A DNA stretch of 64,000 nucleotides, taken from positions 1,798,001 to 1,862,000 of the forward strand of contig JBCAMK010000013.1 in the NCBI GenBank assembly GCA_038503065.1, given 5' to 3'. This document shows, piece by piece, positions 16,686 to 61,626 of this stretch. A program made the translations under genes and the position numbers. Each line of letters opens with the position of its first letter. Position 1 is the first letter of the stretch. The notes under the pieces were generated by a model. The model did no database searches. It saw nothing but the letters and a program-made list of their open reading frames with translations, and had not been told where the DNA came from. This DNA is from Paragyromitra xinjiangensis (lineage: Eukaryota; Ascomycota; Pezizomycetes; Pezizales; Discinaceae).

Positions 16686-18050
16686 ATGTCAATTATAGCT
16701 CGACTGCCTCGAATCGCTGTTCGATACGGCTCTGCATCTAGTTGTCGCCATTACAGTCAAGAATATTCCAACCTCCCGAGGTTCATCAAAATTTCACCGG
16801 AAATCAAAGATGCTCTGGAACAGAAAGCTCCGATAGTGGCTCTGGAGTCTGCAAACCTCTCCCATCCAAACGTTACTAATGGTAAGTTCCTAGTAGCTTG
16901 GAGGAGGAGGGAAGAAACGGGAAGAACCTGCGTTTAATTATAGTTACTGTGTAGGCCTGCCCTACCCTCGAAATATTGAATATGCAGTTAGAGCCGAGCA
17001 GATGATTCGACAAACGGGTGCCATACCAGCTACAATTTCTGTCATTGAAGGTTTCGTACGTGTTGGGACTATGCTATCACTCTTCCATGATTTAGGGACT
17101 AGTGAAGAGGTGCTTAAGGTTTCACGACGAGATCTACCGTATATCTTGGGAATGGTGTGTTCGTACATCTCTCCATTTAATTGCATCAATCATAGGTGGT
17201 AGCAATTTACCAACATATTCGAGTAGCATCGAAAGAGTGGTGGCTGCACCATCGCTGCGGCTATGGCCATTGCTGAGATGGTGGGCATCAAGGTGCTTGC
17301 AACTGGGGGTATTGGTGGAGTTCATCGAGCAGCTACGTTGATGATGGATATCTCGGCTGATGTGGGCGAGTTGGGTCGGACGAATGTGGCGGTTGTGTGC
17401 TCTGGTCCTAGGCCGTATCTCGATGTGGAGGGGACTATCGAATTCCTCGAGAATAGAGGTGTCCCTGTTGCGACATTCAAATCAGCTGGCGCGGGGGATT
17501 CAATGGATGATCCGCTGGAGAATCCGATGGGGGATCCAATAGATATGAGGTTTGCATTTAGGGCGAGGGGGATGAGGGAGACGATGGTACCGGCTTTCTA
17601 CAGTCACTCTGGGAGGATTAAAAGCCCGTTGGTGATAGAAAGTGCCGAGGAAGCTGCGAAAATGATTCGTTTGTTCTCACTGTCAAACCATATGGTCTAC
17701 TCATACTAACACGACTTCCAGACGCCAGTCATGAATTGGGTCTTGCCCCTGGCCACCTGTTCTGCAATCCTATCCCACTAGAGTCTGAGGTAAACATCGA
17801 TGTCATCGAAAACGCTGTACGCAAAGTTTTCAAGCTGGCCCGGAAGAAAAATAAGCGCAATAAAGAGGACATTCAAAATATCGTTTTTGAAACTAGAAGA
17901 TCTGCTCGTGGGGAGGCAATTATAGCAGAAAAGGCTCTTCTTTTAAATAATGCTAAAATGGGCGCTCAAGTGGCTATTGAATTATCAAAACTTGAAGGGT
18001 TTGTCTTTCTCTCACTTCTAATTGAACCTTTCTTTCACAGATCGGTCTAA
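16686..18050 (+). CDS. pseudouridine-5'-phosphate glycosidase-like protein
   Basis: The PsuG family reversibly cleaves pseudouridine 5'-phosphate into uracil and ribose 5-phosphate. Five exons (16686-16881, 16955-17154, 17227-17668, 17722-17998, 18041-18050) close in phase to 374 residues. Family landmarks are IVALES, YPRNIEYAVRAEQMIR, GAIPATISVIEGFVRVG, LKVSRRDLPYI, RKSGGCTIAAAMAIAEM, VLATGGIGGVHRAA, MDISADVGELGRTNVAVV and CNPIPLESEVNID. The basic N terminus (RLPRIAVRYGSASSCR) suggests mitochondrial import. Two oddities: the segment normally carrying the Schiff-base lysine reads CSGPRPYLD, with Arg in its place, and there is an Asp/Pro/Met-rich insertion before PAFYSHSGR. Fungal homologues are often fused to a PfkB kinase. 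Here the frame stops without one. It may be inactive or specialised. Confidence 0.8.
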
Positions 18051-23100: not shown

Positions 23101-23583
23101 AAGATGAGAGCCAGCGAAGCAACCGATGACAAAAAGTCTAACTCAACAGGGTCTAATGACAGAGTTCGAGATATGTGGGATATCGCATTTGCCTACCGAT
23201 CCAGTGTTTTCGAACGTGCTATATCCATGATCTGCATGTTATCTGTCAACTTTGTGTCTCTCTCTGGTTGGGTTGAAATTGGCTAGGCCCGCCCCCTCTG
23301 TATCTCTGTAGCCTTGTTGGCGTGTTGGGAATAACGTGAGCTGCGCACTTTTTAATCACGATATCTGCCTTTTTCGACTTGGACTGGCTTCTGGATCCTC
23401 TTTACTTTAGAATATAGACTCTGTAGACACGCGACGTATGTGTTTAGTGTTGAAACGACTCCTCCCTCAAGCACCGTGAGGCTAACAACGCGGAACTGAT
23501 AGGCTCAGTAATCAGGGTGTTGAATCACTGGCACTATCTCGAATCTAACGGACTTCGTAACTACTACTACATATCCAGTCGTC
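20161..23583. other. gene-poor interval, about 3.4 kb
   Basis: Open frames of 60-100 codons occur at 20566-20898 (plus), 21442-21707 (both strands) and 21884-22445 (minus), none with a recognisable domain or consistent splice sites. The last several hundred bases are the presumed promoter of the ankyrin gene. Confidence 0.4.
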
Positions 23584-30696: not shown

Positions 30697-31922
30697 TCAA
30701 GTGGTGGATGGACTCGTCAAAACATTACCTGGATTAGATGTCAGTCTTTCAACTTCGTTTAGCAGCGTTTTGAGTAACGAAGACATACCGCCATCAGGAT
30801 ATATCACTTGACCGTTAAGGAAAACGCCCCCAGGGCCCGCGAGATACAAGATTGCTGCGGCCATATCTGTATCACTTCCCGACCGCTCTAGAGAGAGTAT
30901 TCCAAGATGGTTAGGATAGGTTCCATTGGTTTAATGGGTATCTTTTAATAACGTACTAGCTGGAACGGAATCTCCCACGCCGTGGAGTTCCGATTTTTGA
31001 TTTTCGTCTGACGAGTCGGCGGTCATCTCGCTGGGGAAGAATCCCGGAGCAATGCTATTTACTCGCACTTTACACTGCGTCAAAGTTGAGCCCAGCATTC
31101 GGGTCAAGTGGATGAACCCTAGTTCCTAATCAGCGACAGGTTCGGGCTTAAAAATGGATGATGGGGTGGAGTACCAGCTTTGGAAGCTGCGTATGCAAAC
31201 TGTCCTTCACTACTTCCTTTCAGTACGCCAGAGATAGACGTAATATTAACAATGGATGAGGAATAGCCTTGTGTGTTTGCGGTTCCTTTTGCTAATAGAG
31301 GTAGGAAAGCGACAGAGGTGAAGAATTGGGAAGTTAGGTTGGTTTGAAAAGTCTCTGTAGATAAGTCAGCCTATTGAAAGCCACTCTAAGAATGGGCGAT
31401 TGTCTCTGAATTCTAACCTTGCCATGATTCGGGGGTCGCTTTCCACAGATGCTCGGAAATTGACTCTGCTGAGCTAAAATCCGGCTTCTCAGCGTTGTAC
31501 GAAGTTGTTTGTTTTTCTTTAGCGACTCCGGCATTGTTGACAAGAAGATGGATACCCTTGGACTCCTTCTTGCCAATCTCTGTTGCAAGGCGTTTCACCT
31601 CGTCTTTTGAAGTAATATCCACGGGTACTCTGCAATATCATTTTCAGAACTCTGGGTCTCTCGAATCTAGGGGTGGACAAACGCACGCAATTATCTTGCC
31701 GGCATTAGGACTCCCCTTCCCGGAATACTTCTCAACAACGGTTTCTAGCGCATCCTTACGACGGCCGGAAATATAGACAGTGGCTCCGTTGGCTACCAGT
31801 GTTTGTGTGATCATTAATCCGATACCACTGCCACCACCGGTCACAACAGCTTTGAAGCCATTCACATCGAACAGCTTTGAGGCGAGAAGTGAAGCATTTG
31901 GATGGTCGTTTGAGGAAGACAT
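30697..31922 (-). CDS. short-chain dehydrogenase/reductase
   Basis: Classical NAD(P)-dependent SDR, closest in style to fungal 3-oxoacyl-[ACP] reductase or rhamnolipid-type reductases. Several exons join cleanly. Exon 1 ends at 31687 and exon 2 is 31629-31418. Further exons follow with donors at SKA and at PA, and a last intron within the final PDGG. Landmarks are VTGGGSGIG (cofactor glycine motif), LLVNNAGVA, SIVNITSISGV (catalytic Ser region), YAASKA (Tyr-x-x-x-Lys), VRVNSIAPGFFPSEMT and LAGPGGVFLNGQVIYPDGG. The ATG at 31922 gives a typical start. An in-frame ATG at 32012 would add about 30 basic residues that could be a mitochondrial presequence, but that stretch reads more like a leader. 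The substrate is unknown. Confidence 0.88.
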
Positions 31923-32689
31923 AGTTTTGGTGGTGTTAAGGATGAATACTCTTTTTATTGGGGTTCGTGTGATAGTAGGGCGGGTTAGGAGTTTATGGAA
32001 GATGGAATGCATTGGAGACGTGACGGTTTGTGTGGTATAAATATTCTAGTTTCTTGGGTATTTTCCCCTTCGGGTACTGTGTTGGTAGGGTGGAAACAAT
32101 TTCCGGTGATAGATGATATCATTCCTACCTAATAACAAGGTCATTATCAACTTCAGCATTGGAATTTCACTTCAGTTAGAGATGTCGTGAAAATGAGGTC
32201 ATTGATTCAACTATGTCAAGAATAATCCCTGAACGGGTAGGAGTTTACTAGTATCAATTGGAATCGTGGTTACCAGCCCCACCACTGGAACTTTATCGTG
32301 CTAGTTATAGTACTTCATGATTAACTTGCAGATATCTTAAGAACGCTGCTATCTAGTGCGTGTCTATAGCTAGACCGAACTCTCATGATTACAATTTATG
32401 CAAGCTTGCTGTGTCAATCCGGAATCCTGACCCTCCGGTCACGGATAGAATCCCATGAACCATCAACTGGGCCCCATTACCCTTCACCCTTGACCAATGC
32501 ACGCATAACAAGCATCAAATGGAATAAGATTGGGGCAGTAAGAAATAACTTTTAATTATAAGAGAGTCGCGGAGAACCGTAGAAGACTGCCACTAGTCGT
32601 ACGGCACCTCTGGTAAAGGTCTAATACTATACCATCAAAATAGTTACAGCTAAGAAAACCCATGATATTGCCCAGTTACTATGGCATAA
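31923..32689. other. intergenic, about 0.77 kb
   Basis: Promoter region of the dehydrogenase and 3' flank of the following minus-strand gene. No recognisable feature. Confidence 0.4.
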
Positions 32690-37753: not shown

Positions 37754-40700
37754 TGGCGTGGTTTTCAAAGAATCGGTTAAGTGTACGTATGCCCGCAATG
37801 ATTTATATGATAAGGTTCCCTGAGACGCTCAAAAAATCTGAGTAACACTACCTCGGAAAGTTTTCGGAAAGCTGCACACATTTCGATCGCACTAGACTAT
37901 TATACGGCACCCCTTGCTAGAGGACCAACTTTAAGCATGATGATGAATCATAAATTTATAAACATCCCACCGCAAACTGCGTGGCATGGAACGACGAGCA
38001 CAAGCACCTACAAGAACAGCCGCCAGCATGCATTGGGGAGATTCTGGAAAAAGATATCAGGCGCTTCCATTAGTATGTATGAATGTAACCTTGTACTGAT
38101 ATGCATAGGCGTGTCCTGAATTCCCATTGTGGATATACGGATAAATGATGACCCTCAGTCTAGCATCCCAGAGGGTATACGTACAAGACCCCCACACAAA
38201 AACATAGTGCTCCCGATAATTCTAGAATTCCTGCTGAAACGTCAGTTAGATAGTGGAATGGTTGGAGATTAATTTAAATATCTACCTTCGGGCTCGCCGG
38301 CGCCGGCAGGTTGGCCGGGGTTATGAACAAAGCGAAAGGGTGTCTAGCATATATATGCATGCATATAGCCCGTCAATGGCGGTGTATCTCCAAGTCGTCC
38401 CATCGCCCAGCCCTATGTGCTTCTGGGATGGTCCTACCAAAACTGGCTTTGACTACTGCACGAACCACCCACGTGTACATGTAGATATCGAGAGTCCAGT
38501 TACTTAGGATGCATATCTCAGCTCGATTTTGATCTATGATTTCGTTTGGTTTAGACAAGCTTTGATAAGAGAATTACTAGCCCGCCTAGGTAATCCCGGA
38601 GATTTTTTCGCAAGAGATTTCACAAGTTCCTAGGAATGAAACTTATCTTCCCTTCTCAAGCTAGCGTCCGATTTCTGCTAAGGCTTAGAACGCCACCGGG
38701 GATGCCGAGGATCTTAGTAGAAGACTGGTGGATGTCTAAGAACTAGCGACAGGATAGCGGTAGTCGCGCTAAGGATTGACAATTGACTCGAGTGATAGTG
38801 AGATTTTTGGCGTACATCTACCCCACGTGAAGGTTCAGATCTTAAGACGATTACTTTCAAACACTCACGGCCAATCATCCGACGAACCTCCGTTGCCAGA
38901 ATCGTAGTCGTGGATCATATGTATGTACCGTATTTTGTCACTAGAGCTTTGCTAGCTAGCAATACTCAAGCCTATCACATAACTAAAGACACTGGCCTTC
39001 AAACACAAAATCCTTAGGTATCTACAGTCTCTTATTTTTGTAGCAGATAAAACGGACAGATACTACTATCTCAATTACCATACCACGATTTAACTATATG
39101 TAATTAACCGGCTTCTTGTATGTGTACCAGACTTCACCAGCTGATGTTGGCTCTAAGACAATGCTCGCGTTTCTGGCCAATAAACATCTTGGTCGCTTAG
39201 GCATAGCTCAGCTGTAGGACTGCCATATGGCCAGCACGATATCCGTCAGATCTGTTCCAATAAACCCTAACCCAAATTCTAGAATAATCCCTGAAATACC
39301 TGAGTATATACCGTCCGAAATCCAGCCCCAATGATATTTGTAGCGCATACCATCGACACGTACACGGCCAAAAGATGTGAGACTACTGGGTCGGAGTCAA
39401 AATTTGTAGACCTCAATTTCCGAGGCTTCGTCGAAACAAGCATAACAAGCATCGCTAGCATATTGTTATCCCTAGATTTCATGATCAGCGCTAAACCAGA
39501 ACGATTCGCTGAGTCACGACTTCCAGATGTGGTTTACTCCGCAGCCCGATTTGCCCACTGCTTGGTAACCCATGTGTTTAATTACTAGCCTTGCTCTCGC
39601 TGCGCCTCTGCCGCGTTGCAGCGCTATCACGGACCGAGGAAAGTATGGCCACGCCTTGTTCTCGTGCTACGCAATACATGGGACTTGTTGTCGCATACGA
39701 AATACTCTGGTCAAAATATTTTCCTACAGCAATGTGGTTTCTATCCCGCATAAAATCCTATAGAGTCTTGGCATCCCGTGTGGTAAGGTGTTACTGGAAG
39801 GTTAATTAGAGTTAGACGCCATACATATTCTACAAGCCCCTTCAATGCCCATCCTTAAGCACATATAAAACACGACGAGATACGTTCTTAACATCAGCCC
39901 TTTATAGTAACAAAAGCACCTAAATCTTGTCTTATACTCTGAAACGAACCTAACGCAGGGAAATTCAGGAGTCATATTGGTTCTAGTTAAACCATAGTTC
40001 ACGGGCTTTCACTTTTTTGAAGTCCGAATATTAGACCTCTAAGTTTAGACGGTCACTCTAGTTACACTTTACGTTCTGTTTGTGGCTTGCTGATCCAGAG
40101 ATACTTATACATGCCTGCTGTCACACTGGGGATTCCCACCGTTAGGATGGGGGGTGCCCTAATGTGCTACCTTCCTATGACGACAACGGTACCGAATAAC
40201 ATGAGCTAGTTGTACCTCTTAGCTAGCGCCTACCAAGCCGGCGGTTTCGTCTTGTTTAATTATATGGGGAAAGCCGGGAAGGAGATGATGAACAGAAGAG
40301 ACGCAACTCCTAGTTAAGGAGAAGCTCGGTGCTTTCCAAGGAAACTAGGATGCGGTGTAGGGGCTGCTGTTTAACGATATAAATACTCGGGTGGTAATTA
40401 TATGCTCAAAGGTTGTGCTACACAACAGCAGTTCAATCCGCAGCCATGGAAACAAAGTACGAGAGGGGAGCAGCAATAGCTTAATTAGGAATCAAGCTGG
40501 CGCTATAGACGTCGTTTCCTTCCTCTGCTTGGAGAGTTTCGTTGGCTTGTAGAGGTTGGTTGTTGGATATGAGTAAGTTGTGTCCATTGTTGAGCTGAAC
40601 CTGCGGATATTCAATCACCGCTTGAGTTTTTAGTTGAATTAGCATCGATTATTTCCCCTGATTTTGCCCATAGTTTCTAACCAACCAGTTCCAGTACCTA

Positions 40701-41598
40701 AACTACAAACGCTCGGGTACCGTAATCTAGGCGGGAGGGTACCCCCAACGATAAAAACAGAGGCAAAAAAAAGTAGGTGCCGTGTCATCACAGGTTATCA
40801 CTCGTTGGAGATTAGGAGATTCACAGATAATTATAGCACTAAAGCTATAATAATAGAAATACACGGGGGAAACAAACACCAGCCCCCGCTACTTAGACCC
40901 CTAGATATATAACGGAACCTTGTAAGCCATTAATATTGTCCATTACCACTTCGTGACACGTAATGCAGCAATGGGCTATAGCTAACAAAAGCCCCATAAC
41001 ACCTAAACCACTAAACCTTACATGCTAGCCGCGCGAAGGATTCCATACTAGATTACAGCCATGTGACGGGAAAAGATTAAGGGTAGATTTAAGGCTTTGG
41101 CGATTTAGAGTAGTTGCTCTTGACCATGATACTGTCAGGCTAAGTATTGGTTTCTCAACTTAGTTTTGAGATAAACAGTGAAAGTGATAGGACGAGGATA
41201 CGATTTTAAGTTAAACACTCCTGAAAGCCTTACTTTTAGTGTTCTGCTGTAAGATCTTTAACCTGCATTGATCTGAGGACGCTTGTTTAGTATTAAGCAT
41301 GATCAGTTCGACGCGGTGATTTGTTAGCTTAGCTCTGATATGGGTCAGCGCGCTTGTCCAGAGCTTGCACTCCTTCCAAAAGTATTAGGACCCTATTGAA
41401 TAAAGTTAAAATTAGAGGACGTGCCGCAGAAAATGCTTCTAAGCTCTAACAAAAGCGTAAAGTAGAAATACGAGTGATTATCTATGACGCTAATGACTAT
41501 GTATGAGAGAATACAAGGGATAATGTATAGCCTTGATGGGCATGACGCAGCCTCGTTCTATGTTGATACACCGCTCAACCGAATTGCTGCCTTGAGTA

Positions 41599-41838
41599 TG
41601 GTTCCGGAAACCTAGAAGGTGTACCAAACTAAGAGGGAGGCAACGCTCTTGGCAGTAGGGTTAAGTCTAGAATCAAGGGAGATTAAGATTATAGAATGGA
41701 AATGGTCATCATTATCTTGTCCACTTGCTGGACGAGCAAATTTTTTCGCCTGCTGCCCTCCAAAAAATTCCCCTAGCCCTGCTGTCAAGAGCGTTGCCTT
41801 CCCCTTAGTTTGGTACACCTTCTAGGTTTCCGGAACCA
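41599..41838. mobile_element. MITE, family A copy 2
   Basis: About 240 bp, bounded by TA on both sides (41597-41598 and 41839-41840). The ends are inverted repeats beginning TGGTTCCGGAAACCTAGAAG and extending more than 50 bp inward through GTACCAAACTAAG and GCAACGCTCTTGGCA. It has no coding capacity and is better preserved than the copy at 34311-34523. Confidence 0.88.
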
Positions 41839-41885
41839 TACCATATGCATAATGCACTATCTTTGAACTGCTAAACAGGTACATA

Positions 41886-42376
41886 CAGTACCTAGACAGA
41901 TGTGTTCGTGATGCGGTTTCAGCGCACAGACGTTAAAATCTTCCCCAAATTCGTCCAACTTTAAAAATTCACCAAAAAAACAAGAATAAAGATGAAAGCT
42001 TTTAATTTCATGGTTAGGTAGAGCTACCTCAGGAGTTTTTTAAGAAATTTTCCCTAAGCCCCTATAATGTATAGTTGTTTTTTAATAATTTTTTGAATTT
42101 GACCAAATATTGTCGCCGAGACCAATTCCCTCATAGCAACTGGGGCCCAAGCACCCTTTATTAAACTTTGAAAATTCACTAGAGCATCAATAGTCATCAG
42201 AAAAAATTATATAAAATCTGATTTTAGTAACCAACAGTGTAGAAATTTATTAAAATTTAGCTGGTATCTTTATCTTTCTCCTCCGATTTAAAATAAAATT
42301 TTGACCTTTGGATCGCTATGCCAAGGCGGATTCCGTCACCTGAAACCGCATCACGAACACATCTGTCTAGGTACTG
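41886..42376. mobile_element. MITE, family B
   Basis: About 491 bp flanked by TA duplications (41884-41885, 42377-42378). The terminal inverted repeats begin CAGTACCTAGACAGATGTGT and continue to GATGCGGTTTCAG, about 36 bp and nearly perfect. A start of CAGT with a TA target is typical of Tc1/mariner-related elements. The interior is very AT-rich and has no transposase. Confidence 0.88.
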
Positions 42377-42869
42377 TACTAGCATAAGTGCTCTGCATAG
42401 TACATATGTAAAAACTTGAAAAGAAATAGCACTGACCAGTCCACCAAGGTCTCTTTATGCTCAACCTTTCTTCTGCCATCTAAATAAGTTTCGTACCGGT
42501 CATAACCAGGTTACGATGGTTCTGGGAGGGTGATTGATTGGTGGTTAAGCTCGACGGGTGGATCACGCTGGAAACAAGACCGTACAATAAAATAGAAAGT
42601 ACGCAGAATTGTTGACTAGAGTTTGATAGGAAAAAAATAAAACCCACATCAAGCTTTAATTGATGTTTGAAGGTTTTTCTGAACGGGGTTTTTGTGTATG
42701 TGGTGAAGGGTTTGCCCCAGTAATCCAAATCAGTACATGTAATCCAAATTCATTGTAATCAAAATCTATTGTAAAAATAACCCGAAGCCGAGTAGAAATC
42801 GCTGGATTATTATTTTCAAATTTCCGGCAGGCTTTTTACATTTTAACTATATGTACATCTTGCTCTCGC

Positions 42870-43340
42870 TACACTGGTGTGCCGAGAGCGACCGGTTCAG
42901 AAATCGTCACAACTTGATCCCCAACAGCGAGATTCACATCAACGTCCATAGCATCCTCAAATACCTCTGGGAGCACCGCCTAGACCACCGCCAATAGGGG
43001 CAATATCGTCTAGGACTCTAACAGCTGCTGCCGCCCATCGCCCTCGAATACCTCGCTAAGCATGGAACCGCTGGCGGCACTTTCGGTTGCTTTGCTGGCA
43101 GGTTTCTTGCCTCCTTTTTGTTCCTCTTGATGCTCAGGGCTGCTGTGCTCCTCTCACCACCCGAGCCTCTTGGTCTGGGCACGACCTACTTGAGTCGTGG
43201 GAGAACGTTTCTGCTCGCCCATCGCCGCCCGCGGCGGCAACATCTGTGTGCCCGCACCCGCGAAATCCGCCGCCAAGGCTTACCGCTGGCGTCTAGCAGG
43301 GATGAGGTGGGTCCTCACATTAATGTCTTCTAGTCGCCAA
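42870..43340 (+). pseudogene. possible coding relic
   Basis: A stretch with clearly higher GC than its flanks and protein-like segments split over frames, for example SDRFRNRHNLIPNSEIHINV then a stop, and LRAAVLLSPPEPLGLGTTYL later. I could not assign a family, find a start, or join the pieces with splice signals. It may be a decayed gene or a fragment of an unrecognised transposon. Confidence 0.2.
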
Positions 43341-44073
43341 GAACTATATTGTTGTGGGGCTGAATGGATTGAGCGGCTGCCACCAGGATCTGTTCAGACG
43401 TCATATTGCGGGTGGCTTCAGATCCTGGGGCAACCTTTTTTCAACATCTTCTCTTACGCGCCAATTCTCGGCTATACTAGTGTAAACTACGCGTCTCCAG
43501 TATGAGGAACGAACTGGTTACTCCGATATTCCTATACCTCGAGCCCTTGGTGGAACATAAATAGCTCTCCCCCGCAGAAAACTTCCGCCAACACACCATT
43601 TCGCCCCCGCTCATCAATTGAACTGAAAGTGGAACAGCTTTGAAACTAATCAGCTTAGAGTTAGATAGTCTTTAGAACCTATTAGGCTCAGAAGTGGTGG
43701 TATGAGGTTTCACGAGGAGCAAGGATTCTATATGGCACAGCGAGATGTGAAGTTAGGAGACTAATCAACTTAAATTCAAAGCAAGACTCAAATACAAAAA
43801 CCAATCAACTCATCCAAGCCAATCAAATCATTTTCGCTACATGGACTGACGAGATAGGAAAAGAAAAGAGTTCGCGCGTTCCAGACGAGAGCTGCTCTCG
43901 CAAAACCAACCTTATCTAACTCGCTGCCAAACAGGTAAAGAAATGACACTAGCCAGAGATACGAGAGCAACAATGCTAATACAAGAGAAAAAAAAAAAAG
44001 CTATCCACCCGTCCAACCACAGAAACAAATGCTATCAGTATCCAACAATCCTTTTTCCCTCTACATGCGATGT

Positions 44074-45350
44074 CTATTTGTCAAGAACGTCGTTACCGAA
44101 ATGGATGTACTCCTTGGCAGGCTCGCGCTTGTCGAGGACATCATTGTCAAAGTGAATGTACTCCTTGGCAGGTTCGCGCTTGTCGAGGACATCGTTGTCG
44201 AAGTGGATGTACTCCTTGGCAGCATTGCGCTTGTCGAGGACATCGTTGTCGAAGTGGATGTACTCCTTGGCAGGTTCGCGCTTGTCGAGGACATCATTGC
44301 CGAAGTGGATATACTCCTTGGCAGGTTCGCGCTTGTCGAGGACATCATTGTCGAAGTGGATATACTCCTTGGCAGCATCGCGCTTGTCGAGGACATCGTT
44401 GTCGAAGTGGATATACTCCTTGGCAGGTTCGCGCTTGTCGAGCACATCGTTGTCGAAGTGGATATATTCCTTGGCAGGTGCGCGCTTGTCAAGCACATCG
44501 CTGTCGAAGTGGATATACTCCTTAGCTGCCTCGCGTTTGTCGAGAACGTCATTGCCGAAGTGGATATACTCCTTTGCGGCCTCTGGGGCGCGCTTGTCAA
44601 GGACATCGTTCCCGAAATGGATATACTCCTTCGCGGGCTCACGCTTATCTAAGACATCATTGCCGAAATGGATATACTCCTTTGCGGGCTCACGCTTGTC
44701 GAGGACGTCGTTGCCGAAATGGATATACTCCTTCGCGGGCTCACGCTTATCTAAGACATCATTGTCGAAATGGATATACTCCTTCGCAGGCTCACGCTTG
44801 TCGAGGACGTCGTTGTCGAAGTGGATATACTCTTTTGCGGCATCTGGGGCGCGCTTGTCAAGGACATCGTTGTCGAAATGGATATACTCCTTCGCAGGCT
44901 CACGCTTGTCGAGGACGTCGTTGCCGAAGTGGATATACTCCTTCGCGGGCTCACGCTTGTCGAGGACGTCGTTGCCAAAATGGATATACTCCTTTGCGGC
45001 CTCTGGGGCGCGCTTGTCAAGGACATCGTTGCCAAAATGGATATACTCCTTGGCCGCCTCGCGCTTATCTAAGACATCATTGTCGAAATGGATATACTCC
45101 TTCGAGGGCTCACGCTTGTCGAGGACGTCGTTATCAAAGTGGATATACTCCTTCGAGGGCTCGCGCTTGTCGAGCACGTCGTTATCGAAGTGGATGTACT
45201 CCTTCGCAGCTTCACGCTTCTCGACGGAATCTGCTTTTTTGTTAGCATGGAGATCTTGATGGGAATAAAGGACTACAAACCTGGTACTGGCAGAGCCAAG
45301 ACATTAGAGCCTAGCAAAGCAAGAGAGACGAGGGAGAGTTGATAACGCAT
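44074..45350 (-). CDS. multi-repeat RiPP (dikaritin-type) precursor peptide
   Basis: Two exons (45350-45281 and 45230-44074, a 50-bp intron) give 408 residues. Exon 1 encodes a signal peptide starting MRYQLSLVSLALLG and ending near VLALPVP. The mature part opens DSVEKR and is then only 22 tandem units of the form EPAKEYIHFGNDVLDKR. Each unit ends in Lys-Arg, a Kex2 site, except the last, which ends Lys-stop. The candidate core is YIHF(D/G)ND: 12 copies have Asp at position 5, 9 have Gly, and one reads YIHFDSD. Secretion signal, Kex2-spaced repeats and an aromatic core start are the defining features of precursors such as those for ustiloxin, phomopsin and asperipin. A DUF3328 gene starts divergently 1.4 kb away. 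The exact core ends (after ND or after VLD) are not determined. The long antisense frames over this region are shadows. Confidence 0.93.
44077..45213 (-). repeat. 22-unit tandem repeat encoding core peptides
   Basis: Units are 51 bp (17 codons), except three of 57 bp (19 codons) that begin APEAAK or APDAAK. The spacing-peptide codons fall into two groups. In plus-strand sense, units in 44100-44515 mostly carry TTGGCAGGTTCGCGC, while units in 44630-45180 mostly carry TCGCGGGCTCACGC or close variants. The coding unit is conserved almost without change outside the EPAK/EAAK/APEAAK spacer and position 5 of the core. Confidence 0.95.
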
Positions 45351-46735
45351 TGTGAAGGCTGTGGGATGCTTGGAGAGGAATAAAGTTTTGGCTTGAGAGT
45401 AGAGGAATGAGCTGAGATGCTGTGATGATGAGGTTGAATGAGGGAGAAAAGAAGAGAACGAGAGCCCTTATATACATAGAGAGCGGGTGGCCCTTGAGGT
45501 TGATAGAAGTAAGCAATCACAAGCTGATGGTTAGAAACGTCTTAGGATTCGAAAATGTCTACCCGTCCGAATTGGCTGGCCTAGGGCAGGGAAGATCTTC
45601 ACCGAACCGTTTTTCATCAGGAGCGATGATGACCCGGCATCTTGAGCCTGAACCCCACGAGATTGCATTCATCACGAAGAAGCAAAACCTACTCAGATGA
45701 ACCATCATCGCTAGGTTCAATTGGCCGAACCTGTTACTCCCGCTCCATGCGAGACGATAATAGCAAAGGCTGCAGATCACTACCCGCCGCACACGTACGA
45801 TCATTACAAATTGTCAATGGCTGGACTTATTGCTTCAACTGGCGCAAGATGACATTGCGAAGGCGGAATGACAGTTCCTCCAAAGGTCATCTGTTGGATA
45901 TCTCCCGTCTTGATGATTATTCAGGGCTCTTAGACCCCATTTGCCCCGCACATTGAAGTTGTTTGGATTTGGTAGGGTTTCTCCATTATCTTCCAATAAA
46001 CCCTGCCATTGCTTATTGCTGATAATGATAAGCACTCGGGCCATGGGAGAAGTGACCGAAACTCGGGGGATATGGCCGCCGGGGAAAGGCTGGGGCTTGA
46101 CTGGCTGGATTCTCGGAGAACAGACGCCCCCACCAACTAACACATTTAGTCCAGGCCCCCTGATTTCGGATGTTTCCTTGAATGCTCTCCCCAGCCTAAG
46201 TGACTAGAAACAGGGGCTATGACTAGGATCAATTTTGTGGGGTGGCGTCGTGTACGAATATTACAAAAGCGCTTGGATGCTTTCTATAGCTTAATTCTGA
46301 CTGAAATATCGTATACGAACGAATTGCATCTTTGCCTAAAGTGACTGTGCCGTGGTCCCGCATTTCAACTATCTCTAACTAGAAACTAATCAATGCACTG
46401 TACCATCACATGCAGACATCGGTCGAGCGTTGGGGAAGATGGAGGGATCGACGTAAACATGGAGGAATTATACACCTCAGAAATGGAGGCGTGGGATCAA
46501 TCCTTGTTTTAGAAGATAATCTCAAATCTTCTAAGTCTCTCGCGCCATCCATTGAGCAGTTCTCATACGACCAGGGGCTTAGCCTCAGGTGATGCCAAAG
46601 ACAGTGCTTCGGTATAACAGCCTTGAAAGCTTGCCAGGCCTTCATCCTCCCTAAAGGGCACTTCCTACTTCCTATTCAACTATCTTTTTCTACTACTACT
46701 GAATTTTTGGAACTGCGTCAACTTCAACTTCGATC
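45351..46735. promoter_or_regulatory. shared divergent promoter, precursor and UstYa
   Basis: About 1.4 kb between the starts of two divergently transcribed genes. It includes the TATA box and leader of the precursor and a leader before the UstYa start (TTTTTCTACTACTACTG near 46685-46701). Short open frames are present but none is supported. No regulator binding site can be named with confidence. Confidence 0.5.
45467..45474 (-). promoter_or_regulatory. TATA box of the RiPP precursor
   Basis: TATATAAG on the minus strand, 117 bp upstream of the precursor ATG. It is followed by a pyrimidine-rich leader with CATCATCACAGCATC just before the start. This layout is typical of highly expressed fungal genes for secreted products. 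Confidence 0.6.
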
Positions 46736-47842
46736 ATGTTCTTCTCGAAGAAGGGATATCTTCCCATGAGCAAAAAACGTCCTTCATACCACGACGACGG
46801 CACTGAGTCTGGCGAGTCTCTCGTTGGGGATTCAAGTTCTCGGAAGTCAAGTTCTGAGGAATTTGTTGTCCAGGAGAAACATGTTGTCTCAAGCATTCTT
46901 GGTGGCAGGAAGAGCCGTCTTTTGATCTTTCTCAATGTTGCTCTATTCTGTATATCGTTAATTTTCTTCACGATGGGGTACGGCTATTCTCTTCGCATCC
47001 GCCGCAATGTCAACAACACTCTTTTAAAAGAAACTAATTATTATTGTAAAAAAACCTCCTCCTTCACTATTCCCTAGGCTGGGTTCAAACGGTGTGTACT
47101 GACTTAGAAAACAGCCCCGCTTCTTGACCAGGTCCAGATATCACTCACGGATGTGCGAGTTAATGGCTCGCTCCTCGATATGGACCACAGTATCTTCCGT
47201 CAACCTTCTAGCCCTGAGGTTGACGCTGCGTGGAACCATATTGCGGACCTCCGCCCCAGCTACATCACTACTGAGGATGTGATAAAGCTCGGAAAAGGTG
47301 AACGCCATCTAGCGGGAAGTTAGAAAACTCGGATTTCTAACCTTAATTCTTTAGATCCCTCTCGCACCGCTAGATATCCCGACGATTTTGGCCTTGGCCC
47401 CGATAAACACGTTGGTGAACTCGATGTCCTTCACCAAATACACTGCCTCAATGCAATCCGGCGAGATCTCGATTTCGAATACTATTTCCGGAAAAAATAC
47501 CCCGATGGTGTCCTTCCCGAATTGCATAAAGTGCACACCTCACACTGTGTGTATATCATCCTGCAACATTTGATGTGTACGGCATCCACCGACATAGTTA
47601 CGCAAACTTGGGTAGAGGGGCAAACGCACCCCTTCCCGGACTTCAGCATCAATCGGAAGTGTAGGGATTTCAACGCTATTCTAAAGTGGCAGGATGAGAA
47701 TGTTGTTGAAACCGAGGCGTTTATGAAATTGAGGCGCCCAGAGGATCAAGTCCCGGTGAGAATGAGTGATGAGTTCAAGAGGATGTTTGGGGTTGAAGAC
47801 TGGGATAGCCACGATCACGATGACCACGCTCACCATGATTGA
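46736..47842 (+). CDS. UstYa-family (DUF3328) RiPP-modifying oxidase
   Basis: UstYa-family proteins carry out oxidative macrocyclisation of fungal RiPP cores. Three exons (46736-47045, 47115-47297, 47355-47842) give 326 residues. A cytosolic Ser-rich tail is followed by one membrane helix (LIFLNVALFCISLIFFTMGY, about residues 63-82), as in type II anchored family members. The lumenal domain begins ETNYYSPLLDQVQ and includes SIFRQPSSPEVDAAWNHI, the first metal-type motif HQIHC in LHQIHCLNAIRRDLDFEYYF, and the second HTSHC in HKVHTSHCVYIILQHLMC. It then has TQTWVEGQTHPFPDFSINRK. Both HxxHC motifs are intact. The C terminus is a His/Asp-rich tail (DWDSHDHDDHAHHD) that I do not associate with the family core. 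The divergent position next to the repeat precursor strongly suggests that this enzyme acts on the YIHF cores in the secretory pathway. Confidence 0.93.
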
Positions 47843-50828: not shown

Positions 50829-52725
50829 TTACATCGTGAAATTTTCTACACTAGCATTTCCCTCTTCCTCCTCGCCATTCAACGGCTCATATCGGTTGTC
50901 CGTTTTCAGTCTGACCAGAAACATGATAACCATTACAAATGCAAACAAAACCGCAGACACCAAAAATGGCAATCCAATCCATGCTCCTCCAAGCTTCATC
51001 CCCCAGCGAAATGCAACCGACAAGGCTGGACCTGCAATTAATCCGCCCAATGTATCAAAAACTGCGATACTGGTGTAGAGCTTCCCGATATTTGATGCGT
51101 CGACCATGGAGGTGATGAGACTACGGGCTGCTGCACCAAAACCCGAACCGAAGGTGTAGACCATAAGGCCTGTAGAACTTAAAGTTAGTGAAATCTGATA
51201 TGTGGATGGAATATAGGTTTAGGGCCTACCGATCACCATCGGCGCAGGGGCTGGAGAAATAGCGATGCCTAAAAAGCCTATGGTCATGAGGACGATACTT
51301 GTGCGTGAGATATAGAGGTCCTTTTTGCCGGGAGTCATCTTCCATCGAGCCATCATCAGGGAGCCCAGCGCTGGCAAAACTGCGAGCAAGAGAACTAGAT
51401 TGACGCCAGCGCGGAGTGAGAAGAGAAAATTGGCCTACGAGTTATTTTTTAGTCAATAATTAGGATGTTTGATGAAAGTGCCCCTTCTAAGGATGGCTAA
51501 GACTTACCTTAGCTAGTGGCCATTCGTATCTCTTTGAGACATATTGCAAAAGCATTTCCATCGCTTGTCGACCGATTGTAGTCACAAAGAATGTAAAGAT
51601 CAAGAGTGTCACATTTATGTCCTTGAGTAGGAAGAGCATAACCTCTCGATAGTTGCTTTCGCGAGGGCTCTCTTCCGAGCTACTTTTTAAGTTATCCTCC
51701 TCTTCATCTTCCTCTTCTTCGGTCGTTGTATTTAATGGTTGGGTATTCTCTGCCTTTGGGCCGCTTGTTTCAGGCAGCGCAAGGGCAATAGGTATTCCTA
51801 AAGATTGAACCCCCAATCCAATGAGCAATGGAGTCCAGACATTACGAGTCATGAGTACAGAGCCCAACAGCGGTGCTAGAAGCTCGGAAGATAGCACGCA
51901 TGCTTGTAACTGGAAGAACATGGTCGATCTAGAAGCCAAAACCTCGAGTTAATAGGTGGTAAAGCTATATCTGAAGACAATCGTACCTCTGTTCCTCTGG
52001 GGTCACATCCGCAATTATCATGAGTATGAGTGCTGACCCCATCTGCGACCCGCCTCCGAGCAATAGAAACATTGAAGATAGCCATGTAAGTTTAATCGGT
52101 AGTGAAAACCAACCTATTCGTTATTGCAAGTTAATAAAGCAACCGACGTTGAGGTAAGAAATGGTCGTACAAACTAAAAGAACCCAGGCGGCTGAGAGCG
52201 TGAGTCCAGCAAGCGTTACAACAAGAATAATCTTCCGTCCAAATCTGTCCGCGAGAACACCAAAAGGTATTGCGAGCACGACACCTATTTACGCCAATCA
52301 GCATACATAGATTTTATCTCGTTCCTGAGTTTGCCAGTACCCGGAATGTTTGAAAACAACGTCTGAAATCCATTCAACATGGCAATCTCGCCCTGTACTT
52401 GATCAATCTTGCAATGTTCCTCTGGAACGTTGCCATTTCCATCAATAAACCCCGGATCATTCTCTTTGTAGTAATCTAAGCAGATGATAGATTCAAAGAG
52501 ACGGATTTGAGGCGCTGAACTTAGGTATGCTGCCATGTCTACCGTCACCACCAGGACGAAACAGAGCAGTGTAGCGTAGAATTGGGGGCTGCTCAGGAAC
52601 CATCTTCGTCGGGCGCTGAGAAGAGCTGTGAACGGAAAGAACCATCTTTGCTCATTGTTGAGAGGCGTAGTGAACGAGGGGAGTTCCTCGCTACCGTCAA
52701 TAGTGGATATTGTAGAGATTGCCAT
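50829..52725 (-). CDS. MFS transporter (putative cluster exporter)
   Basis: Membrane transporter of the major facilitator superfamily, several exons, ATG at 52725 and stop at 50829. The first exon has a cytosolic tail then FYATLLCFVLVVTVDMAAYL and a lumenal loop with CLDYY and EEHCKIDQVQGEIAMLNGFQ. Next come VVLAIPFGVLADRFGRKIIL (motif A region), LGGGSQMGSALILMIIADVT, PEEQRSTMFFQLQACVLSSE, a long acidic loop TEEEEDEEEDNLKSSSEESP, LLIFTFFVTTIGRQAMEMLL and a C-terminal helix pair ending FLVRLKTDNRYEPLNGEEEE. The acidic central loop and the overall style resemble uncharacterised ascomycete MFS proteins often seen in secondary-metabolite clusters. Head-to-head with the methyltransferase gene. The substrate is inferred, not shown. 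Confidence 0.85.
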
Positions 52726-55781: not shown

Positions 55782-58700
55782 CTATTTCTTGAACCCTTTA
55801 AATAGAGGATTACTCGCCACCAGCTTCTCAGGTGTATCAAAATCTATTAGCACACCCTTATCTAGAACCGCAATCCTTTCATATTCCAGTGCGGAGCCCA
55901 GTCTATGAAGTACGGCAATCACTGTGTGTTCGCGGAACTCCTCTTCCACGATTCGCTGCATTAGCTTTTCGGTGGCGATGTCAACGCTATAGCAGCGTTA
56001 GTTTTCCATTCATTGCGGTAGAGAACAGGGAGACAGGAAGACAAACTTGCTTGAGGCCTCGTCCAGCAACAAGACCCGCCCCTCGCTCCTTTTGATTATA
56101 GCTCTCGCGAGACAAAATAATTGTCTCTGTCCCGCGCTCAGGCCCTCTAGATTCATCTCTCCATCTAATCCTCCGAGTTCATTTATTTTATCCCACAGTT
56201 CCACCCGCGTTAATATTTGAACTAGCTCCTCGTCGGGGGTACCGCCTTTGAGGTCGAGGTTAGCCCGAATAGACCCGGGGAAGGCATATGCATCCTGCGG
56301 AATGACGTTCAAATGAGAACGGGCATAATGCCGAGAGATTGTTGAAAGGTCGATATCATCAATGAAGATAGCTCCAGAGGTGAGATCGAGCATTCGGCAG
56401 AGGGCAGTGAGCAGGGATGTTTTGCCGCTGCCGCTGCGTCCGCAAATTGCGACTTTCTGACCCGCTTCAATTCTTAGGGAGACATCTTTAAGGACCGGAG
56501 CTGCTTCTAATCTAATTGTTTCAAGCCAGGCGTCAGCTAATAAGCCCTCTATCGTCAATGGCTGAAACAGGGATTGGCAAACCTATATGCTGCTGAAATA
56601 CCCTTCAACTCTACAACACCTTTGCTTGGCCAATTATTTGGTGATTCGGAAATTTCATCCGATGTAGTCTCATTCGGTGTCTCTCGCTTAAACGTTTCCA
56701 ACCTTGCAATAGCCCCCATACTAGTTTCCAGACCTGTCCAAGAAATAACAAGATTTTTCAAAGTTTCACCAAGCGTTGTGATATTGACCAAAGCAAGACC
56801 AACTGCACCGGTACTGAGCATTCCCGCCCGGCCGACAGCAATGCCTATGATAATAACTGCCAATGCAGCAACGACTAAATCCAGAACTAGTGTGAGCCAT
56901 ACTTGTACGCAGTATAGCAGGTAAAACGGTTTCTGTGAGGCATCAAGGACCCGGTGGTTATTGTCCCGGAAGTGAGACTGCCAGCCAAAAGCACGAATGG
57001 GCGCAAGCCCACTGGAGGTCTCGAGGAAGTGGGCATATAGGGGAGATTTAGCTTCAAGATCCATGAGACGGAGTTGTTTAGAGGTGCGAAGGTAGAATCT
57101 CTGGATAATGTAGACAGCAATGGCTATGAAGGGAAAAGCGACGAGTATAAAGGCCGACGCAGCTGCGATTAGACCTATCTGCACGATAAAAGTAAGGCCC
57201 TCTAGCAGAATCAGAGTCAGCTCGGGGAAGTTCACCAAATAAGCGGACGCCCAAATAACACACCTGATACTGTGTTCAATAGAGATAGTGGCAATGTGCC
57301 ATCGATTAAGAGCATATCTTGACTAAATCTGCGAATTCTTTAGCCTCTTCTCATCTCAAACTGCAAACAACTAGCGTACCTATTGGTTGTAACACCAGTG
57401 TCGATACGGCTTATAAAAGGGAAGGGAGCACTATAACGGCAGTCAGCATTTTGCTGGTCCCTAGGGCTGCGTCGGGCGGTTCACCTCATGACAGTCTGAA
57501 GTAACTCGCGATGAAGATTTCTCCCGGATGTTGCTACCACTCCATGAAATAGATGCCTAAAAGATATTTAATAGTGTTTAAAGAACTGGGAAACAGAATA
57601 CGCCATACCAAGCCCAACCGCAAAGCGAAGTAAACGCCATGACGTTAAACGCTGCATAAACTCCAAGATAGTATCCATTCCTCTCGTTCGGGTGTTCCGT
57701 GTTGGAAATTGACCACCATGTGAGCCACTGATCTATAAATTAAGTGGTTAGAATAGTCGAGGATACGAAATGGATTAGTGGCCGAACCGGGAAACTTCAG
57801 GAGAACAGCAAAACAAATTCCTCCAAGCAAGAAGATGACCGTATGAAGCTTCCCAATCGCTCTGAAGTAGTACATGTATACATCCCTGTCCCTTGTGTTT
57901 ACGTGTTTTCCATTGCTTTCATCCTCGGTGGGCTCTGTTGTTTCTGACCCAGGTTGTTGGTCTTCACCTGAAGTACCTGCTTCATGCTCTGTAGCGCCTT
58001 TGCTCTCTTTCTTAGTGTCACAGAGAGACTTAACATATCCATCTGCCGCCATGATTGCTTCGGGTTTCCCTTGCTCAACTATCCGCCCGTTTGATCCTAG
58101 TGCAATAATCCAGTTGGCATAGCGAAGATAGTGGACTAAAACACTCTATTAGCTCTTGGAGAATTTATCAAGTGCAAGGTTCATACCCGCATTGGTAGCA
58201 AAGACTACGGTTGTCTTAAGGCGTCTTAAAATTCCATCATCTCCCCAAAGCCGTTCGAACAAGAGGTCCTCAGTAATGCGATCTAAACCGGAGAAGATAT
58301 CATCTAATAGCAAAATATCTTTCCGGGAGTATAGCCCCCGCGCTAGAGCCTAATATATCAATAACGTAAGCAACTTCTCGATATCCATCAGAGGGTCATA
58401 TCACACCAGCCGTTGTTTCTGTCCTCCACTAAGTTTGGTTCCTTTGCTACCGACCATAGTTCCATCACCCTCTGGAAGTTGTTGAATATCCTGCTCCAAC
58501 ACACATGCGTGGATAACAGTTTTGTACCACTTCTCATCAAGGTCCATCGGCCCAATTACATTCTTCCGCAAGGTGTCATTAGTTAACCATGGTGACTGAT
58601 CACAAAACGCAATCTGTGTGGAAGACACCGAGACCGATCCTTTCAGGCGTAAAACTTCGCCGAGCAATCCTTTCAACAAGGTACTTTTTCCGCTTCCTAC

Positions 58701-60955
58701 CGGTCCAAGAACCATCACCAATTCCGCAAAGCCGATTCGGATGTCGATGTCTTGCAAAACAGGATTTGAATCAACACTCCAGCCAAAGTTTCCATCACGA
58801 ACAACGATTGCCGAGCGAGCGTCGTCGTTGGTTACTGGCTGCAACTCCCTAATGGGTATTCCCTCCTGTTCGACCCATGAAGAATCCGATGAACTATCTT
58901 TTCTGAGGTAGGGTTGAAGAGAGTGTTGCTCTCTATAATCGTGTCTTGCTGTCGTTGTGAGGAATTCTTGAATGCGGGTCATGCAACTGACAGCTGCGCT
59001 TAATGCTGGTAAAGCTTGAAACAGGTTAATCAACGGAGATGCGAGCAATGAAATGAGTGTCAACGACGTGAACATCCTGGGAACGTCTAAGGTAGTTCCG
59101 TTTTGAGCGGCTATTGCTGTGAAAGATGCGAAAACCAGAACCGGAGAGAAAATCAAGGTTGCGTAAGCTTTAGCGAGCAGGATATCTAGTTAGCATTCTT
59201 CTCCACTCTAGGGTTAGATTCATATCTTTGCGTACAAAGGCCCACAGAGTATACAACACAGCGCCGGAATCGTTTTGCACTCTCAATCTCACTGATCCTA
59301 AGACCCTGGAGTATGTCGAACAATCGCCTCTCTAGACTTAACATTTTCACGGATTTTAATGATCCCAACATGGTAGCAGTGGCATCGACTCTTGTCTGGA
59401 TTGCCTGGATCCAGACCCTCTGGCAGGTACTAGTTACAGCTGATACCTTACCAATACCAAAAGTACAGACTAGCCCGAGATGTCAGCAACTCGTACCACG
59501 CAATTCAAGGATACGGCGGTCTTCTACAAACCTAGAGAAAGTAGGACCATTGCAAGGCAAGCGAGGCCGATTTGACGTTCAAGCAGCCAGGTGGCCAACG
59601 CTACTTCGAGAATATTCCCCCACGGTTCATTAATAAATTTCAAGCCATTGACTATCCTATCGATATCGGCGCTCATCAAGGTGACAGCTACCGACTCCTG
59701 CATAGCCGTAGGGTCCAAAACCAGCATCTTGTCGTAGACGACCGAAATGAGACCCCCTCTGATCATGGTTATGACTCTGTAGACACGATGCCAGTACCAG
59801 GTGTTTGAGGCCTAAGAATATGCGTGAGACATGCGAAGCGGAAGAGCGATTTAAATACGTACCGCAATACCGATATAGACAAGCCCATATGCAACCATCA
59901 GACTGTAGCCTACCGCTTTGTCGCTGTGTCCGGACTCCCCTAAGTACTCGATCACTCTGTTGACAAGGAATGGTTGCGCAAATGTGAAGCCAAGCAAACA
60001 GAGTCTGGGAAGAACAGGCGCTAACAACGGCCACTTTAAGCTTTTGATGACGACCCAAATCAAGGCGTATTTCTGTTGTTTGAGGGATGTAGCTAACGAA
60101 AGAAAGTAGAATTATTAGCGCTAGGATCCGGGCGAGAATGAGGGTCGTAGGATACGAACAAGCCTGGGATTCCCAATGTTTACGGAACTCATGTCCTAAG
60201 AAATCCGAGGACATGGCAGCATCTGTGGGATATAGGTCCTCCGGTAAGAGAATTTTTCGGTAACCATTCTTCAGAAGCCCAAATAGCCATAGAAGAAGAG
60301 TCTGGCTAAAGACTCCGCTCGTTTCTTCGGGGGAGCCTTGCACATCCTTGCTAGTCAAATAACGCCTTTTGCTCGTAGACTCCAGACCGAGGAGGACAAG
60401 TTTCACGGCAACAGTCGCTGTAAAGAGCGCAGAGACGACAGACTCCTGGTCGGCAAGCCAAAGGGTTCTGGCACGTGCAGCGTCAAATATGAGGGTAAGG
60501 AATAGGTAGACACTCAGCAGAGGCGAGGGTCGGATTGCCCTTCGGTGTTCGAGATGGGAAAGCCAGCATACAACGAACGCGGCGGCCAACGATATTGCAG
60601 CCGTGGGAATTGAGGTGCGAGTGCTGAAAGAGCTGCGAGTACACCATAGAACCAGGAAGACGAGCTGCAGACATCCGTATATAACCGTCGCTATCTGTGT
60701 ACAACCGCTGTCAGCCAATGCATGTGGACCTTCGAGGTAGCGACTCACCAGTTTAGCTGTGTGCAAATGCCCATCTCGTACTCTCCTCCCCCGGCCGAGA
60801 AGGGTTTTGAGTCGAACGGAGGCCAGCAAGAGAAAGGATGCAGCTGGAGCAATAGATAATATACTCTCTTCAAAGAGCAGAGTGAAGTCAAACGACCGAC
60901 GGCAAGCTTGGACGGCGGGGCCAAAAAGGTCATCAGCCCTATAGGAACAGTCCAT
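55782..60955 (-). CDS. ABCC/MRP-type ABC transporter
   Basis: Full-length ABC exporter with an N-terminal extra membrane domain, two membrane domains and two nucleotide-binding domains, split over many exons (ATG at 60955, stop at 55782-55784). The N-terminal segment FEESILSIAPAASFLLLASV begins the extra membrane domain. NBD1 has Walker A GPVGSGKST (about 58.69 kb), signature LSGGQKQR (about 58.42 kb) and Walker B ILLLDDIFSGLD (about 58.3 kb). NBD2 has GRSGSGKTS (about 56.43 kb), a degenerate signature LSAGQRQ (about 56.14 kb), VLLLDEASS (about 56.07 kb) and an H-loop VLHRLGSALEYERIAVLDKG. The acidic residue after Walker B is Asp in NBD1 and Glu in NBD2, the asymmetry usual for ABCC proteins. 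It shares a divergent promoter with the M3 peptidase gene. Peptide or metabolite export is a fair inference. Confidence 0.9.
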
Positions 60956-61626
60956 GGCGGGTTTCTAGTTGACTGACGGTGGTGGTGGGGGTGGTGGTGT
61001 ATATAGGTTGGTGCACGTGAGGAAGAACACACGAACTACGGGGAAGGCACGCGGGAGTTCAGTCGAGCACAGCCGCAATCAATTACGGTTATCGAAGTTT
61101 TGGGATGAATTCAAGACGACTGATAGAGGGGCAGATTTACATATGGGTGGAGTGGTCTATTGGCTAAGGCTGACCTTCCAAGTCTCTCCCGGAACCCTTG
61201 ATGCTTCCAAAGATAGCTGGCAAGATTATCAAAGTATTTAAGGACCGGAGAGCCCTGAGAAAGCCCCTCTCTGCTTAGTCAGCGGTGGAAATGTATTCAA
61301 ATTCAGTGGACGAATAAGAGATTCCCCCGTTAGATATTGGTAGCAATCTGTTATCGAACCATCCCTGCTGCGGCAGCAATACATGTATGCTGCATGCATT
61401 CACCTTCTGCAAGTGGTAAGAGGACTGCAAATCCGTCGTGTCACCAACGGAGGTCTCTCGCTTTCCCGGTCAGCATCCAATTCCTTACTCTGCAGTATTC
61501 GCATGTGTGCTGATTATTAAATATCCTCTTCACGGCTCTTGAAATAATCCTCTCATCCCGTGTTCAGATGAGGCTCCTCCCAGTTTATTGCTCTTGCTCT
61601 CTGCTGACTGAAGTCTTCCCATTCTA
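60956..61626. promoter_or_regulatory. shared divergent promoter, ABC transporter and peptidase
   Basis: About 670 bp between divergent starts. It contains a short (GGT)n-like tract at about 60978-60999. No gene is supported. Confidence 0.4.

What the first reader, a model, noticed from the sequence alone, without database searches (positions are those of the whole stretch)
44074..45350. Undescribed dikaritin-type RiPP precursor with 22 tandem YIHF(D/G)ND cores
Seen: a signal peptide followed by nothing but 22 Kex2-bounded units of EPAKEYIHFGNDVLDKR type, 408 residues. Known: ustiloxin, phomopsin, asperipin-2a and epichloecyclin precursors share signal peptide, Lys-Arg spaced repeats and an aromatic-led core. 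Inference: the product is a cyclic peptide built on Tyr-Ile-His-Phe-Asp/Gly-Asn-Asp, and I do not recognise this core from a described member.
Basis: partly seen in the sequence, partly recalled or inferred. Interest (0 to 1): 0.92.

Follow-up and report, generated by a model that had tools for sequence, protein, structure and literature searches.

The report
Morel repeat-peptide gene with cyclase neighbour
A fungal gene, probably from a morel, encodes a secreted protein made of 22 near-identical short peptides and sits beside the gene for a peptide-modifying enzyme, so it very likely makes a new small modified, perhaps cyclic, peptide of a kind already known from moulds.

Summary
On the minus strand, complement(44074..45230, 45281..45350) encodes 408 residues: a signal-peptide-like start, then 22 Kex2-bounded units KEYIHF(D/G)NDVLDK(R). 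Codon evidence shows a translated, selected frame (pS 0.63, pN 0.025).

Starting 1,385 bp away on the other strand is a three-exon gene (46736..47842) for a UstYa (DUF3328) protein (PF11807, 2e-54), the defining enzyme of dikaritins. Its best relative is from Morchella importuna (77%). A dikaritin-type RiPP precursor is well supported; product and cross-link are not shown.

Two corrections. (1) The core is not delimited: VLDK is as invariant as YIHF. (2) All 22 units begin with X-Ala or X-Pro dipeptides, the STE13 trimming signature of alpha-pheromones, predicting a 13-mer, (A/S)KEYIHF(D/G)NDVLD, before further trimming. A pheromone is unlikely: the genome has a STE2 receptor and a separate alpha-pheromone-like precursor.

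No annotated relative of the precursor was found, and no listed paper describes a YIHF RiPP. It is a new member of a known kind: in one survey 22% of Kex2-repeat genes lay near DUF3328 genes.

The parts
44074..45350 (-). Precursor gene: Kex2-processed repeat protein, 408 aa, CDS complement(join(44074..45230,45281..45350))
   Evidence: single intron, 22 units, pS 0.63 / pN 0.025
45281..45350 (-). Exon 1: signal-peptide-like start MRYQLSLVSLALLGSNVLALPVP, likely cut after A19
   Evidence: judged by eye, no predictor run
45231..45280 (-). 50-bp intron (GTTTGT donor, GCTAAC branch-like site, CAG acceptor)
   Evidence: splice signals by eye, no RNA evidence
44074..45212 (-). Array of 22 units: STE13-type spacer ([X-A/P] once or twice, then A or S) followed by KEYIHF(D/G)NDVLDKR; last unit ends in K
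   Evidence: 13 D and 9 G forms
46736..47842 (+). UstYa (DUF3328) gene, 326 aa, exons 46736..47045, 47115..47297, 47355..47842; membrane helix about residues 62-83; both HxxHC motifs
   Evidence: (PF11807 2e-54, residues 60-280); exon borders set by hand
45351..46735 (.). Divergent intergenic region of 1,385 bp between the two start codons; TATATAAGG at 45474..45466 (minus) lies about 120 nt upstream of the precursor ATG
   Evidence: the TATA-like site is a reading by eye
50829..52725 (-). MFS transporter, multi-exon, possible exporter of the product (membership of the cluster not shown)
   Evidence: PF07690 3.2e-22 on hand-joined exons

Best explanation
It is the precursor gene of a dikaritin-type RiPP in a morel-like fungus. 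Proposed steps: (1) the precursor enters the secretory pathway by its signal peptide [inferred from sequence]; (2) the membrane-anchored UstYa protein encoded next door oxidises the repeated unit, most likely at the Tyr of KEYIHF(D/G)NDVLD, giving a side-chain cross-link or a desaturated residue [inferred from what the family does]; (3) Kex2 cuts after each KR, a Kex1-type carboxypeptidase removes KR and a STE13-type dipeptidyl aminopeptidase removes the X-Ala/X-Pro dipeptides, leaving (A/S)KEYIHF(D/G)NDVLD, which may be trimmed further to a smaller ring [inferred; a Kex2 P-domain match and two DPPIV_N loci are in the genome]; (4) the peptide is secreted, the nearby MFS protein being a possible exporter [weak]. 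Shown: gene structure by sequence, the array, selection on the frame, and the UstYa neighbour. Not shown: expression, the modification, its chemistry, the product.
For: Array and frame under selection. UstYa gene divergent at 1,385 bp, with all six HxxHC residues invariant in 12 of 12 aligned proteins. Only two UstYa loci were found in 48.2 Mb (a lower bound), so one lying this close by chance has odds of roughly 1e-4 (crude). In a published survey DUF3328 genes peak right next to Kex2-repeat genes, and Tyr is enriched in the units of linked precursors, 65.6% against 38.2% (PMC7329392 section 7). UstYa kept in a second morel at 77%. Kex2 P-domain and DPPIV_N present.
Against: No relative of the precursor was found, not even from M. 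importuna whose UstYa is in the database. No tyrosinase on the contig, nearest P450 match about 79 kb away. The core is not of the YXIX type. STE13 signatures in Ascomycota are said to be generally dedicated to alpha-pheromones (PMC6339444, passages). UstYa proteins also serve non-RiPP pathways (PMC12048977 section 22). The UstYa fold has no solved relative found here, so the chemistry cannot be read from structure.
Confidence: 0.8

Rival explanations
1. A linear, unmodified secreted signalling peptide (alpha-pheromone-like or developmental), made by Kex2, Kex1 and STE13; the UstYa neighbour is coincidental or acts on something else.
For: X-Ala/X-Pro dipeptide after every KR, 22 of 22; predicted 13-residue peptide; STE13 signature said to be generally dedicated to alpha-pheromones in Ascomycota. 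No canonical WCxxxGQxC pheromone was found in a Kex2-repeat setting.
Against: A UstYa gene starts 1,385 bp away, while in the survey 3 of 216 fungal pheromone-type precursors had one within 15 genes, two of these 12 and 15 genes away. The genome has a separate STE13-signature precursor with alpha-factor-like units on contig C5 besides a STE2 receptor.
Confidence: 0.14
2. A structural or surface-active repeat peptide (repellent or cell-wall type) released by Kex2, unrelated to secondary metabolism.
For: Kex2-repeat proteins of this use exist (Rep1 of Ustilago, mentioned in passages of PMC9769878); the array is long (22 units).
Against: Units are short, charged (K, E, D) and frozen in sequence; UstYa neighbour.
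Confidence: 0.03
3. Not a working gene: a repeat-driven open frame or a decaying relic.
For: No expression data; antisense frames are also open.
Against: pS 0.63 against pN 0.025 only in the annotated frame, 66 of 81 minor alleles at third positions, intact start, intron signals and stop.
Confidence: 0.03

Closest known systems
Asperipin-2a pathway (Aspergillus flavus)
   Same: Kex2-repeat precursor with a single UstYa-family gene; a multidrug transporter belongs to the pathway (PMC12048977 section 21), and an MFS gene lies near here too
   Different: Asperipin also needs a reductase, not identified here; its repeats are typically 8 residues against 15 here without KR; the core FYYTGY is recalled, not from a call, and differs
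Ustiloxin / phomopsin type (Umemura type G-10)
   Same: Signal peptide, KR-spaced repeats, Tyr followed by aliphatic residue, UstYa gene; ustiloxin precursor has 16 repeats
   Different: Their core is YXIX or EDYXI, here KEYIHF; they have two and five DUF3328 genes and a tyrosinase, here one DUF3328 gene and no tyrosinase on the contig
Kex2-repeat types G-5/P-1 and G-6 of Umemura 2020, and Le Marquer's motif 3 (DADAATXYV[A/V]D)
   Same: Tyr with several Asp in the unit and mostly or partly DUF3328-linked; genera overlap with the clade nearest to this UstYa; motif 3 has the same X-A, X-A, A, x, x, Y, aliphatic order by eye
   Different: No sequence comparison was possible: the logos are figures and the tables are supplements; kinship is a lead only
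Ascomycete alpha-pheromone precursors
   Same: Signal peptide, KR sites, X-Ala/X-Pro dipeptides after KR, predicted 13-residue peptide
   Different: No Trp and no Gly-Gln motif in the unit; a UstYa gene next door; a separate pheromone-like gene in the same genome

Membership tests
Dikaritins (RiPPs from Kex2-repeat precursors cyclised by UstYa homologues; definition in PMC10512285, passages) | Secreted precursor with tandem units bounded by Kex2 sites | tested here: met
   22 units with KR between them; signal peptide judged by eye only
Dikaritins (RiPPs from Kex2-repeat precursors cyclised by UstYa homologues; definition in PMC10512285, passages) | UstYa (PF11807) gene beside the precursor | tested here: met
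   46736..47842, 2e-54, both HxxHC motifs
Dikaritins (RiPPs from Kex2-repeat precursors cyclised by UstYa homologues; definition in PMC10512285, passages) | Oxidatively cyclised product | not testable with these tools
   Needs mass spectrometry or expression
Ustiloxin/phomopsin type | YXIX core with Y and I conserved (EDYXI) | tested here: not met
   22 of 22 units read KEYIHF; signature
Ustiloxin/phomopsin type | Tyrosinase in the cluster | tested here: not met
   26 PF00264 matches in the genome (lower bound), none on contig C13
Asperipin-2a type | Single UstYa plus reductase plus multidrug transporter | tested here: inconclusive
   Single UstYa and an MFS nearby; a short-chain dehydrogenase frame lies 12 kb off (31647-32045); 39000-43900 was not scanned with Pfam
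Ascomycete alpha-pheromone | STE13 signature after KR | tested here: met
   22 of 22 spacers fit (X-[A/P])n + [A/S]
Ascomycete alpha-pheromone | Pheromone core (WCxxxGQxC type, or the alpha-factor W...PGQ..Y, recalled) | tested here: not met
   Unit has neither Trp nor GQ; a better candidate is on C5
Ascomycete alpha-pheromone | Expression under mating-type control and binding to STE2 | not testable with these tools
   STE2 is present; no expression or binding data

The most novel reading that the evidence does not exclude
A pheromone-style precursor (STE13-trimmed, 13-residue secreted peptide) has been brought under a UstYa oxidase in morels and gives a cross-linked signalling peptide, with the bond in the Tyr-Ile-His-Phe stretch, perhaps through His or Phe, which I know from no described dikaritin. 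It would be a living intermediate for Umemura's proposal that cyclic peptides arose from linear, pheromone-like repeats.
Probability: 0.13. Interest if true: 0.75.

Novelty: new member of a known kind. Interest (0 to 1): 0.45.

Why it matters
A 2022 review counts only five reported dikaritins (PMC10512285, passages), against 1,758 Kex2-repeat genes with a DUF3328 gene nearby in one survey (PMC7329392). This is a candidate from a morel with a two-gene core, a predictable peptide and computed masses. It is not the first RiPP call in the order: a P450 survey lists an antiSMASH 'Fungal-RiPP' cluster for Sphaerosporella brunnea, and gives 12 clusters for M. importuna without naming them in the text seen (PMC10455484, passages). 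The combination of an alpha-pheromone trimming signature with a UstYa neighbour bears on how modified fungal peptides arose from pheromone-like ones. Morels are eaten, and an outbreak report says little is known about their effects on health (PMC10948192, abstract start in a search listing). Nothing here links this peptide to any illness.

Tried and rejected
Protein-database searches with the precursor: full length (none of the 7,991 candidates scored reached E 0.001) and the first 203 residues with a limit of E 10 (one hit at 0.02 among 7,994, PF00611, dismissed). A calibration with copies altered at random showed that at the scoring step even copies with half the residues redrawn reach 1e-88; it did not test the word and length filters before that step, so the result means no annotated relative of about 112-714 residues sharing enough words, not that no gene exists. 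Weak Pfam and NCBIfam matches of the array (Mistic, FMRFamide, SpvD and three in NCBIfam) have no stretch that passes alone (0 stretches in each row) and are taken as repeat artefacts; two of the Pfam rows are above their curated cut-off. PDB sequence matches of the precursor frame (E 0.58 or worse) and the UstYa (E 0.077) are noise.

Pheromone search: WCxxxGQxC pattern, 4 hits, 3 in an open frame, none in a Kex2-repeat setting; the shorter pattern, 2 hits, not read. KR[DE]A[DE]A pattern, 17 hits against 7 for the backward control; 12 had loci and were read, 5 were not; the only pair close together is the C5 gene. MAT alpha-box: no match, uninformative by the tool's own note. The D/G state of a unit does not follow its DNA kinship (10.2 of 22 nearest neighbours agree; 1,199 of 2,000 shuffles as high). 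The bacterial promoter scan is not informative for a fungus.

Literature: YIHF with RiPP, 0 papers; YIHF or longer forms alone, 33 papers, of which 20 were listed and none is about fungal peptides by title; Morchella with RiPP, 11 papers, one opened for passages; Morchella with pheromone precursor, 5 papers, one opened for passages, only a reference-list mention; STE13 with ustiloxin, 4 papers. YIHF is in none of the main texts of PMC7329392, PMC6339444, PMC7099791. A Pyronema genome paper says pheromone genes are weakly conserved and was not able to list one in its main text (PMC3778014, passages). Supplementary tables, which may list this repeat type, could not be opened. Only the papers held in this library were searched.

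Full report
What is there. The window lies in an unnamed 48.2-Mb fungal assembly of 22 contigs. The closest relative of the neighbouring enzyme is from Morchella importuna (77% over 98% of the protein; the next best identities, up to 64%, cover 56-61%). Published morel assemblies are mostly 48-53 Mb with about 47% G+C (passages of PMC8329594 and PMC6814724; one listed at 73 Mb); the window has 46.1%. A morel or close relative is likely, not proven; at 77% it is probably not M. importuna itself.

The precursor. On the minus strand an ATG at 45350 opens a hydrophobic signal peptide, interrupted by a 50-bp intron (45231..45280), followed in frame by DSVEKR and 22 units to a stop at 44074. Each unit is a variable spacer (EPA 11, EAA 3, EPS 2, APEAA 2, and APDAA, APA, DAA, NAA once each), then KEYIHF(D/G)NDVLDKR, the last without R. 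Between units the block is nearly frozen as protein while third codon positions vary: pS 0.63, pN 0.025, 66 of 81 minor alleles at third positions. The units have diverged at silent sites without changing the product, except for D or G at one place and a single N to S. That is strong evidence of a translated, selected peptide.

Core boundaries. What the sequence does suggest is the start of trimming: after every KR stands an X-Ala or X-Pro dipeptide, in three units two of them, 22 of 22. Five different dipeptides occur (EP, EA, AP, DA, NA), and length changes come in whole dipeptides; the units are related by duplication, so they are not 22 independent cases. This is the STE13 signature known from alpha-pheromones (PMC6339444 and PMC9769878, passages). 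With Kex1 removing KR, the predicted secreted form is (A/S)KEYIHF(D/G)NDVLD. The genome holds a Kex2 P-domain match and two DPPIV_N loci; Kex1 was not searched.

The enzyme. The next recognised gene, divergent and 1,385 bp away start to start, has three exons and encodes 326 residues with a PF11807 UstYa domain at residues 60-280 (2e-54), an N-terminal membrane helix and both HxxHC motifs. Their six residues are invariant in 12 of 12 aligned proteins and in 44 of 44 of a wider set without the window protein. One other UstYa locus was found in the genome (counts are lower bounds): contig C12, profile E 1.7e-20 with stops inside (introns or decay), 24% identical to the window protein in the one piece that tblastn aligned (E 0.054), and without a Kex2-repeat gene in the 20 kb around it. 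In a tree of 62 proteins the window protein and its M. importuna relative pair (99) and fall in a clade (97) with 16 proteins of Sordariomycetes, Dothideomycetes and Eurotiomycetes (quick search, SH-aLRT support only). Several of those genera (Colletotrichum, Cordyceps, Beauveria, Penicillium, Ophiocordyceps) also carry Umemura's Tyr- and Asp-containing type G-6, and most of them G-5, so the precursor might be a divergent member of such a type. This could not be tested.

Surroundings. An MFS transporter follows on the minus strand (50829..52725, hand-joined exons), then ABC transporter exons (56-61 kb) and an M3 peptidase that runs to the window's end (61.6-64 kb). No tyrosinase match lies on the contig, and the nearest P450 match is about 79 kb from the precursor. 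Frames were chosen for Pfam, not all scanned, and 39000-43900 was not scanned at all. The set seen, precursor plus one UstYa plus perhaps a transporter, resembles asperipin-2a more than ustiloxin, on the description in PMC12048977 (section 21).

Is it a pheromone? Against it, the genome has a STE2 receptor and, on C5, another STE13-signature precursor whose units PWSARPGRGVY and, apparently across an intron, PWHPRPGQAVY recall yeast alpha-factor. In the survey of 7,878 Kex2-repeat proteins, 3 of 216 fungal pheromone-type ones lay within 15 genes of a DUF3328 gene, two of them 12 and 15 genes away, and none of 227 yeast-type ones. In that survey 17 of 76 homologues of Basidiomycota pheromone-like precursors did have a DUF3328 gene nearby, so STE13 signature and UstYa together may not be unique.

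Novelty. No similar protein was found (scoring calibrated), no second copy in the genome, and no RiPP paper with YIHF. But architecture and enzyme are those of a known class in which 1,758 of 7,878 repeat precursors have a DUF3328 gene nearby. It is a new member of a known kind, with a distinctive core and an unusual trimming signature.

Noticed in passing
G000 contig C5, about 1894577-1895313 (L021 1233-1969): Alpha-pheromone-like precursor candidate: signal peptide, then units PWSARPGRGVY and, apparently across introns, PWHPRPGQAVY, with KR and EAEA/DPEP-type STE13 spacers; several introns fall between units. Morel or Pezizales pheromones seem poorly described.
   Followed up: partly
G000 contig C12, 1317800-1318402 (in L010/L011): Second UstYa locus, with stops inside (introns or decay), next to a large ABC-transporter-like frame; no Kex2-repeat gene in the 20 kb around it.
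   Followed up: partly
window 44156-45259 (+): A 367-codon stop-free frame runs antisense through the whole repeat array; codon statistics mark it as a by-product (pS 0.37, pN 0.06 against 0.63 and 0.025 in the sense frame).
   Followed up: yes
window 23524-25077 (+): Ankyrin-repeat protein with many repeats (Ank_2 1.5e-70).
   Followed up: no
window 8368-9543 (-): Frame with DUF7492 (8.7e-12) and a sub-threshold AA9-like match (6e-5).
   Followed up: no
window 16897-17199 (+): Exon of an Indigoidine_A family (pseudouridine-5'-phosphate glycosidase-like, recalled) protein (1.6e-17).
   Followed up: no
window 56013-60964 (-) and 61612-63998 (+): ABC transporter exons with a TMD0 domain, beside an M3-family peptidase that runs off the window's end.
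   Followed up: no
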